From NCBI GenBank assembly GCA_937773775.1, contig CALJVL010000006.1, forward strand, positions 1-64,000: a DNA stretch of 64,000 bases. Reading direction: 5' to 3'. The translations under genes and the position numbers were made by a program. Source of the DNA: an uncultured Flavobacterium sp. Lineage in GTDB: Bacteria; Bacteroidota; Bacteroidia; Flavobacteriales; Flavobacteriaceae. Position 1 is the stretch's first letter; every line of letters begins with the position of its first letter. This document shows positions 7,447-42,066 of this stretch, piece by piece. Below the pieces are notes generated by a model. That model saw nothing but the letters and a program-made list of their open reading frames with translations, was not told the origin of the DNA and ran no database searches.

Positions 7447-7472
7447 AATATTTAGACAAAGCTAAAAATATT
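7447..7472. promoter_or_regulatory. Operator-like inverted repeat between TonB receptor and Nramp gene
   Basis: AATATTTAG-ACAAAG-CTAAAAATATT: inverted TTTAG/CTAAA arms around a 6-base centre. The portion TTTAGACAA..TAAAAATA also occurs upstream of both FecA-type receptors (16400-16416 and 19158-19174). It is the best candidate for a metal-repressor site controlling this divergent pair. Binding is inferred. Confidence 0.55.
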
Positions 7473-9485: not shown

Positions 9486-10139
9486 ATGACATTATCAGAA
9501 GAGAACTACCTCAAAACCATTTACCATATTACAGTTGTTTCAAATTCTGAAGTGAGCACTAACGCCATCGCCGAAATGATGGAGACTAAAGCTTCCTCGG
9601 TAACTGATATGATAAAGAAACTGGCTGAAAAGGACTTGGTTAATTATAAAAAGTACCAAGGGGTTTATTTAACGGATAAGGGTAAACTAGCTGCTAAAAT
9701 GATTGTGAGGAAGCACCGTCTTTGGGAGGTTTTCTTAGTAGAAAAATTAGATTTCTCTTGGGATGAGGTACATGATATTGCCGAGCAATTGGAACATATA
9801 AAATCAGAAAAACTAATCAATAAATTAGATAATTTTCTGGGAAACCCTACCACTGACCCACATGGTGATCCAATTCCAAATGTAGAGGGGCAAATCCTTA
9901 AAATTGAGAAGCAATTGCTTTCGGAGTTGTCTGCGAGTCAAAAGGGAACTTGTGTAGGGGTGAAAGACACTTCTTCTGAATTTTTGAAATACTTAGACAA
10001 ACAAAAGATTGCCTTGGGTTCAAAAATAGAAATACTCAGCAAGGAAAGTTTTGACTTGTCATTCAAAATTAGTGTAGACGGCATAGTTTTGACGATTTCA
10101 AATAAAATTGCCAGTAATCTTTTCGTGGAAACGACTTAA
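9486..10139 (+). CDS. DtxR/MntR-family metal-dependent repressor
   Basis: The 217-residue protein has an N-terminal winged helix (about 1-65), a dimerisation/metal domain (about 66-135) and a C-terminal SH3/FeoA-like domain. Likely metal ligands are His77 and Glu81 (RKHRLWE), His96, and the triad Glu100-x-x-Glu103-His104 (AEQLEH). At the position where iron-sensing DtxR/IdeR has Cys102, this protein has Glu, as manganese-sensing Bacillus MntR does (Glu99). The DtxR Met10 position is Asn. This argues for manganese sensing, although the SH3-bearing length is DtxR-like. It lies directly downstream of the Nramp gene and is its likely regulator. Confidence 0.88.
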   Translation: MTLSEENYLKTIYHITVVSNSEVSTNAIAEMMETKASSVTDMIKKLAEKDLVNYKKYQGVYLTDKGKLAAKMIVRKHRLWEVFLVEKLDFSWDEVHDIAEQLEHIKSEKLINKLDNFLGNPTTDPHGDPIPNVEGQILKIEKQLLSELSASQKGTCVGVKDTSSEFLKYLDKQKIALGSKIEILSKESFDLSFKISVDGIVLTISNKIASNLFVETT

Positions 10140-14112: not shown

Positions 14113-16345
14113 TTAAAATTTTGCGCCAACTGAAAGGTAGAATGTTTGAGCTTCGCCAGGTAAAATTCCTGGTCCAGGATAACCGCTAGCTCTTCGGGTT
14201 GTATACTGCTCGTTAAATACATTATTAATTCCTGCTTTCAGGTTGTAATTTTTCTTGAATTTATATTCGGTTGATAAGTCAAATACTTGATAACCGTCGA
14301 GGTAAACCTGTAACGCCGTTAGCAGATGGTGCTGTGGTATTGTTTGCATCTGTAAAAACTCTACCAGACATGCGGTACTGCATCGTGCTTGAAAATTGAC
14401 TGTTACTCCATGAAAGGCCTAAATTGTGAATGTATCTTGGAGCATTTTCTACTCGATTGCCCGAAAGGTTATTTTCGGTAATGGTTGTATTTTGTCCCGT
14501 TCCCGACGAAGTGAAGGTTTGGAAATCCCCGTAGCGACTATCAATAAAACTCATCGAAGCAAAAAAGTCTAAGGCACCGTATTTTTTATCCATGGATAAT
14601 AATCGGGTAACATTCAAATTAAAAAACCCTTCAATCCCTTTGTTTACTGTTTCTCCTAAATTAGTTCTGAAAAGAAAAGTACCTTGCGTTGGATCATTGT
14701 TTACAAATTGTGTTACTCCACCAATACGGTTGTTGTAACTCAAATAAAACAAGCTTAAATCAAAATTCAAATAGTTTTTGAAGTTACCCCTAAATCCTAA
14801 ATCGGCATTAAAACCACTGGCATCTTTTAAGTTGGGATCAATTACATCTGTTACTGCGGGTGGTGTTAGGTCTGAAAACAATACAGGTCTGAAAGCTTGA
14901 GTAATATTAGCATATACATTGGTAGTGTTAAACTTATACTCGATGCCCAATCCAAAAAGGGACTTATTTCTCACTAATGTTTCTTGAGGAATAGGTACGT
15001 CGATTCCTTGTGAAACTCCAAATCTTCCTTGGCCCACGGAGGTAATATGTTCGTAGCGGATGCCGGGAGTGACACTAAATTTTTCGGTTACTCTAAACTG
15101 GTTTTCTGCAAAAAGCGCAACATTTTCAGTTGTAAAATCTAAATCCCTAGGATAAGCTCCCTCTATACTCAGATCGAAATCATTTCCGGTAGTACCGCGT
15201 CCTTGTTGTTGTCTTGTTGTGTTTGCTTTGTACAATCTGGCACCAAATGCCAAGTGTTGTTTGGTTTTTCCTAAATTATATTCTAGAATATTTCTATTTT
15301 CAACACCAAAGTTTTGGTAGAAATCACGATCAACGCGTCGATTAGCTAAGCTGTTTGTTGTTGGATTAACAGCATCTGCCATATTCGGAGTAGCGGTGAA
15401 ACCGACACTATTTCGCTCACCAACCAAACCAAATAATTTGGTGTTAGAGCTTAATCTTGAAGTTATTTTTGTGTCAAAATTCAATGAAAATACATTCCAA
15501 GGGGTGCCAAACCAATTACGACCGCGTACCGATTGTCTTGGGTTTTCATCAAATTGTACATCAGTTAAACCACCTGGCTGCTGCATATCATAATTCATAT
15601 TGGTATACTCGGCTGATATTTTTGTTTTATTAGTGAAGCGATACTCGATAAATGCATGTGTGTTTCGCACTGAATACTCGTTATTTTCTCTCCAACCGTC
15701 AGCACTCCTCGAATGGTTGTATGAGTAATAAGAGAATTTTTTAATTGTTCCTCCAATGGCGTTGTAGCTACTCATCAACCCATAGCTTCCAACTGTATTT
15801 TGAGTTTCAAAAGTAAATTCTTTTTCGGTTTCTCTTTTAAGCACATAATTCAACATACCGCCAAACTGAGGGCCAAACTGCAAGGATGCACCACCACGAA
15901 TCAATTCTATTGTTTCAACCGCCTCCATTGGTGGATTGTAGTATGCTTCTGGATACCCAAATACATCAGAAGAAATGTCGTAGCCGTTTTGTCTTGTATT
16001 TAGTTCCCAACTTCTGTTCGGACTTAAACCTCTTACACCAACATTGATTTGAATGCCAGAACCTTCATTTTCCCAAATGTTTACACCGGGAATTCTTGAA
16101 AAAATTTCTCTGGCATTATTCGTAGCAAAGTTTCCGTTGATGCTAGAAAGTCGCACTACTTCATTTTTTTTACCTGAAAAAAGCGTGTTGTTTTTGATCT
16201 CAGGCAAACGTTCTGGACTTTGTTTTTTTGGAGTAACTATAACAGGTGACAATTCTTTGATAGTGTCATTCTGTGTTAAATTATTATTTTGGGCGTAAAT
16301 TTGCGCCGAAACAAAAAGGACCAGTAGCGAAAAAGAAAACTTCAT
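14113..16345 (-). pseudogene. FecA-type TonB-dependent receptor broken near its C-terminus
   Basis: The main frame (688 codons) carries a signal peptide, a plug (GVRGLSPNRS, then LIRGGASLQFGPQFGG) and most of a barrel, the layout of FecA-like ferric-siderophore receptors. A one-base insertion at 14304-14306 (GGTTACC to GGTTTACC on the coding strand) replaces the last part with a short false tail. In the next frame the missing end is intact (YLDGYQVFDLSTEYKF... to ...FYLSVGAKF, stop at 14113). The repaired protein would be 743 residues with a terminal Phe. Without the last strands the barrel should not close. The promoter region is well preserved, so the break is recent, or it is an assembly error. 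Confidence 0.82.
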
Positions 16346-16353
16346 ATTTATTC

Positions 16354-16414
16354 TTATTTAGATTAATTCTATGGTGCAAATATAGAACCCTAATCTTATT
16401 TAGACAAGGTAAAA
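16354..16414 (-). promoter_or_regulatory. Promoter with two operator-like sites for the broken FecA-type receptor
   Basis: On the minus strand TTG (16405-16407), 20 bases, then TATATTTG (16377-16384): an exact -33/-7 pair. One TTATTTAGA word (16396-16404) covers the -33 region. A second, in TTATTTAGATTAATTCTA (16354-16371), lies just downstream of the expected transcript start. Both positions suit a repressor. The block is nearly identical to 19111-19172. Confidence 0.75.
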
Positions 16415-16683
16415 ATAGCGATTGAAGGAACTTTAACATTCGTTTATTGAGTCATAGTAGTGTCTGACGATTTGAAAAAGAAGTTTGACTCGTTTTTGCT
16501 GCTGAAAAGAAGTAATTTGTATGTTGAAGGGAAAGGTGCGGGTGTTAATTCTGAATGTAAGGATTCGAAATTTATTGAAAACAGGACATTGCTTTTATAA
16601 AAAAATGTAAAGTCCTTTGGGGGTTTAGTAGTCAGTAAAAAAATTAAAAAATCATTCGGAATGTAGCGTCATTGAAAGTTTGG
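16415..16683. other. Spacer between receptor promoter and Cys-rich peptide
   Basis: AT-rich spacer with no supportable gene. A weak AGGAC/GTCCT inverted repeat (about 16584-16617) is the only structure noted. Confidence 0.5.
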
Positions 16684-16812
16684 TTAATGACAGCCACAGC
16701 CGTCGTCACCACAATTTTTAGCGGATTTTTTCTTTTTCAAAAAGAATTTTTTAATTAGAAATGCAAGTGCAATTCCGAGTGCCATAAAGGCTATAATTTC
16801 TTGAATATCCAT
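16684..16812 (-). CDS. FeoB-associated Cys-rich membrane peptide
   Basis: This 42-residue product (MDIQEIIAFMALGIALAFLI, a Lys-rich stretch, then NCGDDGCGCH) matches the small FeoB-associated Cys-rich membrane proteins: one N-terminal helix, a basic cytoplasmic segment, and a Cys-rich tail (Cys34, 39, 41 plus His42). Such peptides are thought to help FeoB-mediated ferrous iron import, perhaps by handing over iron; their mechanism is not established. feoAB lies 2.4 kb upstream on the same strand with a receptor gene in between. TATTTTTG, matching the -7 consensus, ends very close to the ATG, so the leader would be short or absent. A decayed second copy is at 13928-14030. Confidence 0.85.
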   Translation of the reverse strand: MDIQEIIAFMALGIALAFLIKKFFLKKKKSAKNCGDDGCGCH

Positions 16813-16826
16813 ACTGCAAAAATAAG

Positions 16827-16853
16827 AAAAAGCAACCGAATGGGTTGCTTTTT
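16827..16853. terminator. Terminator downstream of the intact FecA-type receptor
   Basis: AAAAAGCAACC, loop GAAT, GGGTTGCTTTTT: a strong hairpin with flanking A and T tracts. On the minus strand it follows the receptor stop codon and separates it from the Cys-rich peptide gene. Confidence 0.88.
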
Positions 16854-16877
16854 AGAGTTAAACTAATGACAAAATTT

Positions 16878-19106
16878 TTACAATTGTGCCATAATTCCAA
16901 AATTGATACTGAAAGGCATTCCTGGTCGCAATCCTGCAGGAACTCTTGACACGGCATACTCTTTATCCATTAAATTAACTATGTTCGACATCAGACTCAC
17001 TTTTTGACTGAGGTGATATTTTGCTGATAGATCTATAATAAAATTACTGTTTACTTTGTTTTGTGAGGGAATTGCTCCAGCACCAGCTAATGTTCTGAAT
17101 GCGTCTACATATTTACCACTGAGGGCAAGATTAAATTTTTCCGTTTCGAAAGCTGCTGTTAGGGCAAATTGATTTTTTGCGATATACGGAATTTCGTCTC
17201 CTTGCTCTACATTTCCCCAGATTGGGCTGTTAAAGTCACTATTTAATTTAGTGTCTGTTAAAGTATATGAAAAAGTAAGAGGTAGTTTGTATTCTTTGTC
17301 TGAACTATTTAAGATATCATAAGTTGCAGAGAATTCAATTCCTTTAACAATTGCTGCGCCTGCATTGAACAAATCACCGGTTCCAGTTCCCCCGCCAGAC
17401 ATATTATCAGTTCCTTGTAAGTTAGAAAAATCATTATAATACCCAATCAACTCGCCGTAAAAGGCATTTTTGCGGAAGCGAAAGCCAAGTTCTGAGTTGA
17501 TACTACTTTCTGCATCTTCGCCAACTTTTGCTCCTGGAGGAGAGAACCCTTTGTGAATGCTTGTAAATACGTTGTAGTCCTCGTTTATTTTGTAAAGTAT
17601 GCCCATTCCAGGAATCCAAACATCTATATGGTTATCTACTTTTGCTACAGTTGATCCGGTTCTTGAAACATCATTGCTACCATAATTGATGGATTGCAAA
17701 TTGATGTTTTCATATCGTATTCCTGGAGAGAAAGTAAATTTGTCATAGCTAATCGTGTAAAGAATATGAGCAGCGACTGCTTCGGCTTTTGTAATTCTAT
17801 TTGCGTCTGTGCCTGGTGTTCCGTTGGATGTTCTATTCATTACACCATTTTGGATAGCGTATCCGTCGACCCATTGAAAGCGATCCTCATAATCTTCGTG
17901 GTAACGAAAGCCAAAATCAAGGTCATGTTTAAGTGATCCTTTTCCAAAATTATAATTCGCTACTGATTGGATTCCTTTTGCCCCATACTTTCGGTTGTTA
18001 GCCTTAACTAATAATGCATTATCTGCAGTGTTGTTTGCGCCCGTTAAAGCTAGGTATTCTGCATTGTAAGTCGTTGGATCAGTTAAGATAGAGTTTATTC
18101 CCACTTTTGTAGATCCTAGTTTTAAGGCATCAAGCTTATACCAGTTCCTAGCGAAGTCATTTTGATATGCCTTTGTTGTTATATTAAAATTTTGGGAAGG
18201 TTTTATAAAATGGGTCAGCAGAACTTGTTTGTGCTCTGAATCAATATAATCTTCATTCGAAGCTGCATATCTTCTATAAGGGTTATCACCATAATCTTCT
18301 TCGGTTAGGCCAAGGTAGGTTTCATTAGCTAAATCCTCGCTGTATTGAATTTTGGCAGTCAACGACTGATACACTTTAGCATCGGCATCCGTATTAACTC
18401 TAAACTTAGCTACATAATCGTTTCCTTCGAAACCAGTGTTTTTCGTACTGTTGTCAATTTTTTTAAACCCATCAGAATTTCTGTTGTTGTACTCTAATAC
18501 GTACCCAAAGTTCTTTCTTTCGTCTCCAATATTGACATATGTTCTTTTAGTATTGAAACTTCCAATGCTCGCCACAACTCTGGCTTTAAAACGGTTTGGT
18601 ATTTGGGTAGAAACCATATTGATAGCTCCACCTGTGGTATAGGGACCGTATTGAATTTGACTTCCGCCTTTGAGAATTTCAAAAGCTTGCATGCGGTTTA
18701 CTGTTGGGAAATAATAAGCTGCTGGAGCTGCATAAGGCGCTGGTGCGATCAGAACACCATCTTCCATAAGTGTTATTTTACTAGAACGATCTGGACTGGT
18801 TCCTCTCATGCCAATATTGGGTCTGAGGCCAAAACCGTCTTCTTCCTGAATATTTAAACCAGGAATAGTTCTTAGTATGCGAGAGACATCATCGTAGTTA
18901 AAAGTTTTTAGTTCTTTTGCTGAGATAAAAGAAGTAGAACCAGCCTTGTTTTTGGCTTTGAATTTACTCCCGACAATGGCATCAGTGTTGATAACAACTT
19001 CATTTAAATTTTCAATACTGTCTTTTTGAGTATTCGTAAGTTCCTTCTCTTGCGCAAATAAAACTGGTGCAATTAATAGCGTTGCTGCAATTATAATATT
19101 TCTCAT
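16878..19106 (-). CDS. FecA-type TonB-dependent siderophore receptor
   Basis: The 742-residue outer-membrane receptor has a signal peptide (1-18), a short TonB-box region, a plug (about 55-190) with GMRGTSPDRSSKITLMEDG and ILKGGSQIQYGPYTTGGAIN, and a barrel ending FSINFGIMAQL. The plug strings closely follow the ferric dicitrate receptor FecA (GIRG-NPDRS, RGG-A-QYGP-TTGG). It lacks the N-terminal signalling domain of true FecA and the carboxypeptidase-like domain of the 5168 receptor. The substrate is probably a ferric-carboxylate complex, but that is inference. An exact -33/-7 promoter with two repressor-like sites lies directly upstream. A paralogue at 14113 is frameshifted. Confidence 0.88.
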   Translation of the reverse strand: MRNIIIAATLLIAPVLFAQEKELTNTQKDSIENLNEVVINTDAIVGSKFKAKNKAGSTSFISAKELKTFNYDDVSRILRTIPGLNIQEEDGFGLRPNIGMRGTSPDRSSKITLMEDGVLIAPAPYAAPAAYYFPTVNRMQAFEILKGGSQIQYGPYTTGGAINMVSTQIPNRFKARVVASIGSFNTKRTYVNIGDERKNFGYVLEYNNRNSDGFKKIDNSTKNTGFEGNDYVAKFRVNTDADAKVYQSLTAKIQYSEDLANETYLGLTEEDYGDNPYRRYAASNEDYIDSEHKQVLLTHFIKPSQNFNITTKAYQNDFARNWYKLDALKLGSTKVGINSILTDPTTYNAEYLALTGANNTADNALLVKANNRKYGAKGIQSVANYNFGKGSLKHDLDFGFRYHEDYEDRFQWVDGYAIQNGVMNRTSNGTPGTDANRITKAEAVAAHILYTISYDKFTFSPGIRYENINLQSINYGSNDVSRTGSTVAKVDNHIDVWIPGMGILYKINEDYNVFTSIHKGFSPPGAKVGEDAESSINSELGFRFRKNAFYGELIGYYNDFSNLQGTDNMSGGGTGTGDLFNAGAAIVKGIEFSATYDILNSSDKEYKLPLTFSYTLTDTKLNSDFNSPIWGNVEQGDEIPYIAKNQFALTAAFETEKFNLALSGKYVDAFRTLAGAGAIPSQNKVNSNFIIDLSAKYHLSQKVSLMSNIVNLMDKEYAVSRVPAGLRPGMPFSINFGIMAQL

Positions 19107-19110
19107 TTTT

Positions 19111-19172
19111 TTATTTAGATTAATTCTACGGATGCAAATGTAGAACCTTAATCTTATTTAGACAAATTAAAA
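19111..19172 (-). promoter_or_regulatory. Promoter with two operator-like sites for the intact FecA-type receptor
   Basis: On the minus strand TTG (19163-19165), 20 bases, then TACATTTG (19135-19142). TTATTTAGA words lie at 19154-19162 (over the -33 region) and in TTATTTAGATTAATTCTA at 19111-19128 (downstream of the start site). The layout is the same as at 16354-16414. Confidence 0.78.
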
Positions 19173-19228
19173 ATAAAAAAATTTATAATTTTATTTCATG
19201 GAATTTTAGTAGATTATTAATCAGTGGA

Positions 19229-21328
19229 TTACTTCAAAATTTGATATGAAATTAGTGCCACAATATAAGCAAACCCACTCATGAAAATAAGCTGACCTAA
19301 GGGCCATTTCCAGGAATTCGTTTCTTTTCGGGTAATAGCAATGGTACTTGCACATTGTAAAGCAAAGGCATAGAATAGCAATAAGGATATTCCTGATGCG
19401 AAGTTAAATATTTTCTTTCCCGTTACTGGGTTAACTTCGGCCGCCATTTTGTTTTTTATCGTGTCTTCACTATCACTGCCACCAACACTATATATCGTAG
19501 CTAAGGTTCCTACGAAAACCTCTCTAGCGGCAAAGGAAGTTAAAACGGCAATCCCAATTTTCCAGTCATATCCCAAAGGAGAGATAGCAGGCTCAATTGT
19601 TTTTCCCATAATCCCAATATACGAATTTTCAAGTTTATATGAGGCCACTTTGTTTTGGAGCTGCTGTTGTGTCAGATTTGTATTGCCAGCCTTAGTGTGT
19701 ATTATCTTATCCGCGCTATCAAATTTTTGACCTGGCCCATAAGAAGCCATAAACCATAAAACAATCGAGATGGCTAAAATTATTTTTCCCGCGCCAAAAA
19801 CAAAAGCTTTGGTTTTTTCAATTACATTAATCGCTACGTTTTTAAACATCGGCAATTTGTAGTTCGGCATTTCAACAACAAAAAATGTTTTACCTTTTAT
19901 TTTTAATATCTTATTCAAAGCATAGGCTGAGAATATAGCCATCGCAAAACCTAAAAGGTACAATAGCATTAAGGTTAAGCCTTGAAGATTGAATATACCA
20001 AGCACGCGAGTATCGGGAATAACCAACGCAATTATAATAGCATATACAGGTAGTCTGGCAGAACAGGTCGTAAACGGCGTAACAAGAATGGTAATAAGCC
20101 GTTCTTTCCAGTTTTCAATATTTCGGGTCGCCATAATGGCTGGTATGGCACAGGCCGTTCCAGATATTAATGGAACAACGCTTTTTCCTGATAAACCAAA
20201 TTTACGCATTATCTTATCCATTAAGAAAACCACTCTACTCATATAACCACTTTCTTCTAATATGGAAATGAATAAAAATAAAAAAGCAATTTGCGGAATA
20301 AAAATTAAGATTCCGCCAATACCGGGGATGATACCTTGCGAAATTAGACTTGTTAGAACACCAGCCGGTAATGAATCGTTTGCTAAGCTGCTTAAAGAGG
20401 CAAAAGAGCTGTCAATGAAATCCATAGGAGCTTTTGACCAGTCGAAAATCGATTGAAAAATAATGAATAATATAGAAAAGAAAATAACGTATCCCCAAAC
20501 TTTGTGCGTCAATACTCGATCCAGTTTACTTCGAAAATCCTTAGCCATGCTAGCGTCTACTTTTAGTCCTTCTTTTAGGACATCATTAATAAACTGATAG
20601 CGCTTGATAGTTTCTTTTTGTTGTAAACGTTTTAAATCCGAGTGCGATTTAGTAAAGGAGCCTTGAATCTCCTTACGCTCTAAATTCAGGAAATTTACAT
20701 CTTGGGTGATTACTAACCACAGTTTGTATAACAACTGGTTAGGAAATGCTTTACGAAGGCTATTGAAATATTCTGTGTCAATAACCGAAGCGTTCAAACA
20801 AGGTTCGCTTGAAATGGATTTGTAAGTGACAATCAATTTTTTTAACTCTTCGATTCCAAAACCTTTTCTGGAGCTTATAAGAGCAATTTTAGTTTTTAAT
20901 TTTTCCTCTAGATACGGTATGTTTAATGTAATTCCCTTGTGTTCCATTCTGTCAGCCATATTGATGACTAAAATGGTAGGGATTTCTAAATCTTTTATTT
21001 GTGTAAAAAGCAGTAGATTACGTTTTAGATTTTCCACATCGGAAACTACCAGAGCTACGTCCGGATATAACTTATCGTTTTTGTTAAGCATTAATTCGAT
21101 TACAACATTTTCGTCAATCGAACTAGCATTAAGACTATATGTACCTGGTAGGTCTAAAATATTTGCCTTTATATTATGGGATAATTTACAAAAACCTATT
21201 TTTTTTTCAACGGTGATTCCGGGATAATTTCCTACCTGTTGGTTCAGCCCAGTCAACTGATTAAAAACAGAAGTTTTGCCCGTATTTGGATTGCCTATTA
21301 AAGCGACATTGATATTTTGGTTGATCAT
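19229..21328 (-). CDS. feoB: Ferrous iron transporter FeoB
   Basis: The 699-residue inner-membrane protein imports Fe2+. The N-terminal G domain is complete: G1 GNPNTGKTS (12-20), G3 DLPGTYSL (about 59-66), G4 NMAD (about 123) and G5 SSRKG (about 151). After the helical GDI region come two Gate domains with the Cys-bearing STACA/CSARLP segments (GTACAIPAIMATR, TTCSARLPVYA). The start ATG overlaps the feoA stop by one base (TAATG), so the two are translationally coupled. The length is normal for a FeoB not fused to FeoA. Iron-responsive control through the site upstream of feoA is likely. Confidence 0.95.
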   Translation of the reverse strand: MINQNINVALIGNPNTGKTSVFNQLTGLNQQVGNYPGITVEKKIGFCKLSHNIKANILDLPGTYSLNASSIDENVVIELMLNKNDKLYPDVALVVSDVENLKRNLLLFTQIKDLEIPTILVINMADRMEHKGITLNIPYLEEKLKTKIALISSRKGFGIEELKKLIVTYKSISSEPCLNASVIDTEYFNSLRKAFPNQLLYKLWLVITQDVNFLNLERKEIQGSFTKSHSDLKRLQQKETIKRYQFINDVLKEGLKVDASMAKDFRSKLDRVLTHKVWGYVIFFSILFIIFQSIFDWSKAPMDFIDSSFASLSSLANDSLPAGVLTSLISQGIIPGIGGILIFIPQIAFLFLFISILEESGYMSRVVFLMDKIMRKFGLSGKSVVPLISGTACAIPAIMATRNIENWKERLITILVTPFTTCSARLPVYAIIIALVIPDTRVLGIFNLQGLTLMLLYLLGFAMAIFSAYALNKILKIKGKTFFVVEMPNYKLPMFKNVAINVIEKTKAFVFGAGKIILAISIVLWFMASYGPGQKFDSADKIIHTKAGNTNLTQQQLQNKVASYKLENSYIGIMGKTIEPAISPLGYDWKIGIAVLTSFAAREVFVGTLATIYSVGGSDSEDTIKNKMAAEVNPVTGKKIFNFASGISLLLFYAFALQCASTIAITRKETNSWKWPLGQLIFMSGFAYIVALISYQILK

Positions 21329-21567
21329 TAAAGATTAATTTTTATAAGTTCAACTTCAATCTCTTTAGCGGTCTCAGTACGAATTGCTAAATGGGAACCA
21401 TTAATGTCCAAATATAAAGGGTCGCCAAAAGGCGCAATTTGCAGCAATTCGACTATGTTTCCGGGCAAGCAACCCATTTCGAGAAGCTTTAATGGAACAA
21501 TGTCAATATCAAAATCTTTGATAATGGCTTTCTCGCCTTTTTTTAGTGAATTTATCGTTGTTTTCAA
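21328..21567 (-). CDS. feoA: FeoA, SH3-like accessory protein for FeoB
   Basis: The 79-residue protein is a single FeoA/SH3-like domain (LLEMGCLPGNIVELL is the family signature, around residues 29-43). It is the cytoplasmic partner of FeoB and overlaps it by one base. The only plausible start is TTG at 21567, since no ATG or GTG in frame would keep the first strand. The TTATTTAGATT word lies only four bases upstream of that start, so a bound repressor would also sit on the ribosome-binding region. Confidence 0.9.
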   Translation of the reverse strand: MKTTINSLKKGEKAIIKDFDIDIVPLKLLEMGCLPGNIVELLQIAPFGDPLYLDINGSHLAIRTETAKEIEVELIKINL

Positions 21568-21570
21568 GTC

Positions 21571-21635
21571 TTATTTAGATTGAATTAATATTGCAAAAGT
21601 ACATATTATAATACTAAAACAGATGATAATTATCA
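21571..21635 (-). promoter_or_regulatory. Iron-responsive promoter region of feoAB
   Basis: On the minus strand TACTTTTG (21594-21601) gives a -7 element, without a clear TTG at -33. Downstream is a TTATTTAGATT word (21571-21581) as in the two receptor promoters. Upstream is a perfect 12-base palindrome TGATAATTATCA (21624-21635), centred where a -33 box would be. Two different symmetric elements therefore flank the -7 box. Confidence 0.65.
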
Positions 21636-41932: not shown

Positions 41933-42066
41933 AAGTCAAAAGTCTTAAAATTGTTTCACATTGAATTCAATTGTTTTTTCAGCATACAATTAATCTAAAT
42001 AAAGTGCTGGTAAAATTAAGTTGTCACTGAGCCTTTGACTTTATGAGTTTTGACTTTAGACTTTTG
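41933..42066. repeat. Spacer bracketed by AGTCAAAA/TTTTGACT words
   Basis: Shortly after the DMP19-like stop is AAGTCAAAAGTCT (41933-41945). Just before serS are TTTTGACTT and AGACTTTTG (42048-42066). CAAAAGTCT/AGACTTTTG is a perfect 9-base inverted pair across about 110 bases, built from repeated AGTC/GACT words. Confidence 0.55.

What the first reader, a model, noticed from the sequence alone, without database searches (positions are those of the whole stretch)
16354..19172. Nearly identical 62-base promoter/operator blocks before two divergent FecA-type receptors
Seen: 16354-16414 and 19111-19172 share TTATTTAGATTAATTCTA, the -7 element, TAGAACC, TAATCTTATTTAGACAA and TAAAAATA in the same order, with about six differences. 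The receptors themselves are only distantly similar. Inference: the block is under regulatory constraint. The two TTATTTAGA words sit over the -33 region and just past the start site, so one repressor could clamp the promoter at both sites.
Basis: partly seen in the sequence, partly recalled or inferred. Interest (0 to 1): 0.72.

Follow-up and report, generated by a model that had tools for sequence, protein, structure and literature searches.

The report
Double Fur lock before swappable receptors
Two predicted iron-receptor genes in what is likely a Flavobacterium share the same predicted promoter, bracketed by two copies of a sequence resembling the binding site of the iron regulator Fur; related species carry this block in front of one or the other of the two receptors, so iron is likely to switch off whichever receptor sits there.

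Summary
The exact dual block occurs in 27 of 299 congeneric genomes, the reversed control pattern in none. In 32 distinct blocks a −33, a −7 and two operators keep nearly fixed distances (operators 41-43 bp apart). Both operators have the geometry TTATTTAGA-N5-TCTAAATAA, whose core is the Fur box reported for Riemerella (PMC5609570). The genome's only DtxR/MntR-type regulator has a different box before mntH or dtxR-ZIP, which as a class does not fit the block; an exception is the upstream site of block 1, weak on both models. One repressor, predicted to be Fur, at both sites is the best reading; 'clamping' is untested. The receptors are in tandem on one strand, 26% identical. The block is the promoter of a slot after feoB that holds receptor R1 in 13 and R2 in 11 block genomes, both in the window's own. 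In one clade the receptor ORF differs while promoter and downstream flank are kept. New variant of a known kind; as an exact sequence seen only in this genus.

The parts
19154..19176 (-). Block 2, upstream operator TTATTTTTA-ATTTG-TCTAAATAA; the -33 TTTG lies in its 5-bp centre
   Evidence: 15 of 19 letters of the Riemerella Fur box; Fur-model scores 9.4-12.8, MntR-model 7.7; TTATTTNTA half kept across 32 blocks
19111..19133 (-). Block 2, downstream operator, core TAGA-ATTAA-TCTAAATAA, covering the predicted transcription start and leader
   Evidence: 15 of 19 letters of the Fur box; Fur-model scores 6.3-17.6
19163..19166 (-). Block 2, predicted -33 element TTTG
   Evidence: 20 bp before the -7; TTTG in 29 and CTTG in 3 of 32 blocks
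19135..19142 (-). Block 2, predicted -7 element TACATTTG
   Evidence: TAnnTTTG in 32 of 32 blocks; consensus itself recalled
16396..16418 (-). Block 1, upstream operator CTATTTTTA-CCTTG-TCTAAATAA (weakest of the four)
   Evidence: 13 of 19 letters of the Fur box; Fur models 0.8-3.3, MntR model 8.3
16354..16376 (-). Block 1, downstream operator
   Evidence: 15 of 19 letters of the Fur box; Fur models 10.1-16.2
16405..16408 (-). Block 1, predicted -33 element CTTG
16377..16384 (-). Block 1, predicted -7 element TATATTTG
16878..19106 (-). Receptor R2, TonB-dependent receptor (FecA-like plug)
   Evidence: Pfam PF00593 and PF07715; best solved match FecA, 6.4e-20
14113..16345 (-). Receptor R1, TonB-dependent receptor; main frame 14279-16345, C-terminal part in another frame (14113-14349)
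   Evidence: Pfam PF00593 and PF07715 on 14279-16345; best solved matches YncD and PqqU; frames
19229..21328 (-). feoB
   Evidence: Pfam FeoB_N, Gate, FeoB_C
21328..21567 (-). feoA (TTG start)
   Evidence: ORF; relatives found by tblastn in 27 of 30 regions; not itself scanned against Pfam
21571..21593 (-). Fur-type operator of feoA, at the same place after the -7 (21594-21601) as the downstream operator of the blocks
   Evidence: kept in relatives; 13 of 19 letters
9486..10139 (+). DtxR/MntR-type repressor fused to a FeoA domain, the only PF01325 protein of the genome
7451..7466 (+). MntR-type box TTTAGACAAAGCTAAA before mntH (contrast site)
   Evidence: MntR model 25.0, Fur models -4.0 to -5.8

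Best explanation
Each block is a predicted flavobacterial promoter (-33 TTTG or CTTG, -7 TAnnTTTG) with two operators of the Fur-box type, one with the -33 element in its centre and one covering the predicted start of transcription, and iron-loaded Fur is likely to bind both and shut the receptor gene off when iron is plentiful. Shown: the two operators share one geometry (9-bp half, 5-bp spacer, 9-bp half, the far half of the downstream one being only partly kept); they lie 41-43 bp apart centre to centre (about four helical turns, so on one face) in 32 distinct blocks; as a set they fit models of Fur-type sites and not a model of the MntR-type sites of the same genus. Inferred: that Fur is the protein and iron its signal, that both sites are filled together, that the upstream site keeps sigma off the -33 and the downstream one blocks start or escape. 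Also shown: the block stands before a slot after feoB that holds either of two distantly related receptors in different species. Inferred: receptors are exchanged behind a kept promoter.
For: Dual block exact in 27 of 299 genomes, reversed control 0 of 299. In 32 distinct blocks length 54 in 24, 53 in 7, 55 in 1; upstream half matches TTATTTAGA at 6-8 of 9 letters in the Fur register (mean 7.3, against 2.8-4.5 in the neighbouring registers tested), and TTTAG in the MntR register in 0 of 32. -33/-7 distance 20 in 25 and 19 in 7; -7 to downstream operator 5 bp in 31 of 32. Fur box with EMSA on promoter fragments in Riemerella (PMC5609570, passages and section 18; PMC10986502, passages). One Fur in the own genome, Fur in 32 of 32 genomes examined. 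Models. Same operator type at feoA, imelysin, an ECF sigma factor and a small protein in relatives or the own genome. Slot contents; exchange.
Against: No binding or expression data. The upstream operators score below most Fur training sites (median 10.6-16.0 against training minima 14.2-19.2), and block 1's upstream site scores better on the MntR model (8.3) than on the Fur models (0.8-3.3). The pattern-found Fur training set is partly circular for the downstream operator. DtxR-FeoA is encoded near the block in most block genomes. Own-genome scans at up to 3 mismatches show no excess over the reversed control. feoA, the neighbour, has only one such operator. PMC7976709 (passages) gives a different, E. 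coli-like Fur-box sequence for Riemerella.
Confidence: 0.7

Rival explanations
1. Two repressors: Fur binds the downstream operator and the DtxR/MntR-FeoA protein the upstream one, so that the receptor answers to iron and manganese together.
For: TTTAGACAAA of the upstream operator equals the left part of many MntR-type boxes; block 1's upstream site scores 8.3 on the MntR model and 0.8-3.3 on Fur models; dtxR lies 3.5-5.2 kb from the block in 23 of 27 block genomes.
Against: MntR-model median of the 32 upstream operators 1.1, training minimum 18.3; 0 of 32 have TTTAG in the MntR register while TTATTTNTA is kept in the Fur register; CAAA is explained by the -33 TTTG on the other strand.
Confidence: 0.15
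2. Only the downstream operator is a Fur site; the upstream conservation is promoter sequence (A+T-rich flank and -33), and conservation after the start partly serves translation initiation.
For: The upstream site overlaps the -33; the end of the downstream operator lies 1-8 bases from the start codon and is A-rich; feoA and other sites have a single operator.
Against: TTATTTNTA is kept at one exact register in nearly all 32 blocks, more than a loose A+T-rich flank needs; random 31-mers reach the upstream median score on the Fur models at p 2.5e-5 to 5e-4.
Confidence: 0.1
3. The likeness of the two blocks in this genome is only a recent tandem duplication or gene conversion without regulatory meaning.
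For: The non-operator spacer of blocks 1 and 2 is alike.
Against: The block stands before R1 alone in 13 and R2 alone in 11 other species, and the operators are kept while the spacer drifts.
Confidence: 0.03

Closest known systems
Fur box of Riemerella anatipestifer, ATTTAGAATTATTCTAAAT (PMC5609570; also PMC10986502)
   Same: Core of TTATTTAGA-N5-TCTAAATAA; before iron-uptake receptors of a Flavobacteriales member; promoter fragments bound by Fur in EMSA
   Different: Table 5 of PMC5609570 lists one box per gene; here two boxes at fixed distance, one around the -33. Riemerella is another genus, and binding was not shown for Flavobacterium
MntR/DtxR-type operator (TTTAG-N6-CTAAA) before mntH and dtxR-ZIP in the same genus
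   Same: TTTAG half-site; metal-uptake genes at the same locus
   Different: 6-bp spacing and inner RC...; block sites have the 9-5-9 geometry and, as a set, do not fit its model
Promoters with more than one Fur site in other bacteria (recalled, not tested; listing only)
   Same: Several Fur sites over one promoter
   Different: Bacteroidota -33/-7 promoter with the -33 in the middle of one operator, and a genus-wide fixed distance

Membership tests
Fur-regulated promoter (Flavobacteriales Fur box) | Match to the 19-bp Fur box | tested here: met
   15 of 19 for three operators, 13 of 19 for block 1's upstream site; 6 of 63,982 window positions reach 15, three of them these operators
Fur-regulated promoter (Flavobacteriales Fur box) | Site overlaps promoter elements or start | tested here: met
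   start of transcription predicted from the -7, not mapped
Fur-regulated promoter (Flavobacteriales Fur box) | A Fur protein is encoded | tested here: met
   one in G000, in 32 of 32 genomes examined
Fur-regulated promoter (Flavobacteriales Fur box) | Metal-dependent binding of Fur to the site | not testable with these tools
   needs EMSA or footprint
Fur-regulated promoter (Flavobacteriales Fur box) | Iron- and fur-dependent expression | not testable with these tools
   needs RNA measurements
MntR/DtxR-regulated promoter | TTTAG-N6-CTAAA box as before mntH and dtxR-ZIP | tested here: not met
   0 of 32 upstream operators have TTTAG in that register; median model score 1.1 against training minimum 18.3
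Bacteroidota housekeeping promoter | -33 TTTG and -7 TAnnTTTG about 19-20 bp apart | tested here: met
   -7 in 32 of 32; distance 20 in 25, 19 in 7; TTTG in 29, CTTG in 3. That -7/-33 elements exist is stated in PMC5609570; the consensus is recalled

The most novel reading that the evidence does not exclude
The slot after feoB is a docking site: a double-locked Fur promoter stays in place while whole receptor genes are swapped behind it, so that a newly acquired outer-membrane receptor is under full iron control at once; the tandem in the window's genome, two near-identical promoters before two different receptors of which one already carries a frame change, is a swap caught in progress.
Probability: 0.3. 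Interest if true: 0.7.

Novelty: new variant of a known kind. Interest (0 to 1): 0.5.

Why it matters
It carries the Riemerella Fur box over to a second genus with a precise double-site architecture, separates the predicted Fur and MntR codes of these genomes, and offers a natural series (same promoter, different receptor) in which to ask how receptor identity changes while control does not. If two Fur sites four helical turns apart act together, this is a compact system in which to test it. Outer-membrane iron receptors are elsewhere entry points for phages and antimicrobial peptides (recalled), which would be one possible driver of the exchange.

Tried and rejected
Rejected: the inverted repeat TTCTAC...GTAGAA around the -7 of block 2 as a functional palindrome; it seemed to covary between the two blocks but is absent from many relatives. 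Rejected: plain local duplication as the full story. Rejected for the set: MntR at the upstream operator. Rejected: the bare TTATTTAGA word as a signal. Taken as chance: the Streptococcus phocae stretch (no upstream half-site, no -7).

Limits. Own-genome scans at up to 3 mismatches do not exceed the reversed control (47/44 against 47/43; 28/28 against 31/31), so no full regulon of the own genome was derived; at up to 1 mismatch one search gives four places, two of them the blocks. Searches used a gap of 18-30 bases, which excludes the usual 54-base block (it needs 31), so they see only shorter blocks and one search's zero is uninformative; one search repeats the family scan with 22-40. The named-genome scan could not be repeated (cap), so its named species (F. 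sedimenticola, F. difficile, F. ammonificans, F. buctense and several MAGs; 16 stretches in all) show only the shorter variant. The 32 blocks were chosen by exact pattern, so the letters of the pattern itself are not evidence of conservation; only the letters outside it and the distances are.

Papers. One search (motif letters; 20 of 285 listed) gave nothing relevant. The listings showed no paper on a double Fur operator in Flavobacterium; I read passages only of PMC5609570 (plus its section 18), PMC7976709, PMC10986502 and PMC10434265.

Rows dropped. MntR sites: two of 30 mntH loci (L115, L141) had too little upstream sequence; of the 51 upstream regions then scanned (23 dtxR, 28 mntH) six mntH regions had no box within one mismatch: in four (L113, L114, L118, L124) the upstream sequence looks by eye like the end of dtxR, one (L116) has none, in one (L129) my start codon was wrong. 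Two of the 27 block genomes (G116, G255) were not fetched for gene order. FeoB tree: L195, L198 and L201 left out (split or missing feoB); L178 is a very long branch.
Full report
Observation. Both receptor genes are on the minus strand in tandem and 26% identical. R2 (16878-19106) is closest among solved structures to FecA, R1 to YncD and PqqU, so 'FecA-type' fits R2 better than R1.

Anatomy. In the direction of transcription each block reads: half-site TTATTTNTA (N mostly A or T), five bases that hold the −33, half-site TCTAAATAA, spacer, −7 TAnnTTTG, five or six bases, TAGA-ATTAA-TCTAAATAA, then 1-8 bases to the start codon. The downstream operator thus makes up most of the predicted leader. 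The start of transcription is inferred from the −7 and not mapped.

Conservation. The exact dual block (TTGTCTAAATAA, 18-30 bases, GAATTAATCTAAATAA) is in 27 of 299 genomes of the genus at 28 places, the reversed control in none. With four more from named contigs this gives 32 distinct blocks: 24 of length 54, 7 of 53, 1 of 55 (could only add short ones). The −33/−7 distance is 20 in 25 and 19 in 7; the gap from the −7 to the downstream operator is 5 in 31 of 32. A promoter alone would keep the first distance; it does not demand the second, nor the TTATTT half upstream. In a sample not chosen by the pattern, the six genomes of 61 with an R2 relative, four including the own genome show both operators (in G019 the downstream one is decayed), one (G044) has two words at another distance and one (G022) a single operator-like site. 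In 397 genomes sampled from the family, 3 of them of this genus, only the own genome matched.

Which regulator. The own genome holds one Fur (C13:208086) and one DtxR/MntR-type protein with a FeoA domain (window 9486-10139). The Fur box published for Riemerella anatipestifer, ATTTAGAATTATTCTAAAT, with EMSA on promoter fragments (PMC5609570; a variant in PMC10986502), is the core of TTATTTAGA-N5-TCTAAATAA; another Riemerella paper cites an E. coli-like box instead (PMC7976709). Three of the four operators match 15 of 19 letters and block 1's upstream one 13; 6 of 63,982 window positions reach 15, three of them these operators. A perfect copy of the 23-bp palindrome lies in the own genome before an uncharacterised 123-residue protein. 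In relatives the motif TAGAATTAATCTAAATAA (up to 1 mismatch) has 102 places against 14 for the reversed control in 121 genomes; among the 30 loci looked at it stands before relatives of R1 and R2, imelysin, ECF sigma factors and the same small protein. In Riemerella feoAB is reported to be Fur-regulated with a Fur box (PMC10434265, passages).

The MntR alternative was tested on material chosen by gene homology: 45 of 51 upstream regions of mntH or dtxR carry TTTAG-N6-CTAAA within one mismatch, and the own mntH, not in that set, has TTTAGACAAAGCTAAA (7451-7466). A model from these sites gives the 32 upstream operators a median of 1.1 (training minimum 18.3) and the downstream ones −13.0. Three Fur-type models (pattern-found sites; feoA sites; both) give 16.0, 10.6 and 14.3 for the upstream operators and 19.4, 12.7 and 18.4 for the downstream ones, with training minima of 16.7, 19.2 and 14.2, and −4.1 to −5.4 for the MntR sites. 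So the upstream operators are Fur-like but weaker than typical training sites. Against the reading: block 1's upstream site scores 0.8-3.3 on the Fur models (p about 0.01) and 8.3 on the MntR model (p 0.0003), and block 2's scores 7.7 on the MntR model (p 0.00035) against 9.4-12.8 on the Fur models (p 0.0007 to 0.00005). dtxR is 3.5-5.2 kb from the block in 23 of 27 block genomes; in the own genome it is 9.6 kb away, in G116 and G129 on another contig, and in G255 (82% complete) none was found. The two regulators thus share a locus even if not a site.

Mechanism. Fur with iron is likely to sit on both sites; the upstream one would cover the −33, the downstream one the start. The centres are 41-43 bp apart, about four helical turns, so two dimers would face one side. 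Whether they touch, bridge or simply act twice cannot be told from sequence.

The slot. Thirty stretches from 29 genomes were fetched: 26 genomes with R1 or R2 and three for contrast. The common order is SCO1, feoA, feoB, block, receptor, then convergent dtxR with ZIP or mntH. Of the 27 exact-block genomes 25 were examined (24 fetched and the window): R1 in 13, R2 in 11, both in the window's genome. On a FeoB tree of 28 rows the labels need 5 (R1) and 6 (R2) changes; starred branches force 4 and 6; 1 and 10 of 500 shuffles are as low, so the types cluster but did not arise once each. None of the four R1-slot genomes in the sample (G012, G029, G039, G040) has an R2 relative at 1e-30. In one clade the change is sharp: G012 (R1) against G067, G187 and G239 (R2) has feoB at 87-88% nucleotide identity, the 80 bp before the start codon at 88-91%, the receptor ORF at 54% and the 60 bp after the stop at 78-93%; against G260 the figures are 86, 84, 54 and 47. 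In a second clade the downstream flank differs too: G029 against G007 and G236 88, 71-73, 54 and 45-46; G232 against G007 82, 80, 54 and 39. Either a receptor gene is replaced behind a kept promoter, or an ancestral tandem lost different members; the sharp case favours replacement, and a tandem as in the window could be the intermediate of either.

Verdict. Observation confirmed; interpretation partly supported: one kind of repressor at two sites, predicted to be Fur, yes for the set; clamp untested; block 1's upstream site doubtful. The operator kind is known. The double-site architecture with the −33 inside one operator, and the different receptors behind one promoter, did not appear in the paper listings searched.

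Noticed in passing
14113-16345 (-): R1 spans 2233 bases where a relative (G012) has 2232; its C-terminal part is in another frame (14113-14349) than the 688-residue main frame. Either a real frame change or an assembly error.
   Followed up: partly
21624-21635 (-): TGATAATTATCA upstream of the feoA promoter, kept in similar form in many relatives; resembles an FNR/CRP-type palindrome (recalled), which would fit control of Fe(II) uptake by oxygen.
   Followed up: partly
7451-7466 and relatives (L113-L142, L172-L198): MntR-type box TTTAG-N6-CTAAA before mntH or dtxR-ZIP in 45 of 51 upstream regions; where mntH is not found, dtxR is followed by a ZIP transporter.
   Followed up: yes
L005 1116-1487 (G000:C14): Uncharacterised 123-residue protein with no Pfam match, directly after a perfect 23-bp Fur-type palindrome; its relatives in the genus have the same operator.
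   Followed up: partly
41985-42002 (-): TTATTTAGATTAATTGTA, one mismatch from the downstream operator, between a DMP19-like gene and seryl-tRNA synthetase.
   Followed up: no
L040, L041, L042, L046, L060, L064: ECF sigma factor genes in large-genome congeners carry TTATTTAGAATTAATATAAATAA just upstream of the promoter (Pfam run on L040 only), suggesting Fur control of iron-type sigma factors.
   Followed up: partly
L105, L107, L111: Metagenome bins labelled Bdellovibrio, Rhizobium and Bifidobacterium breve carry Flavobacterium-like blocks; the labels are probably wrong.
   Followed up: partly
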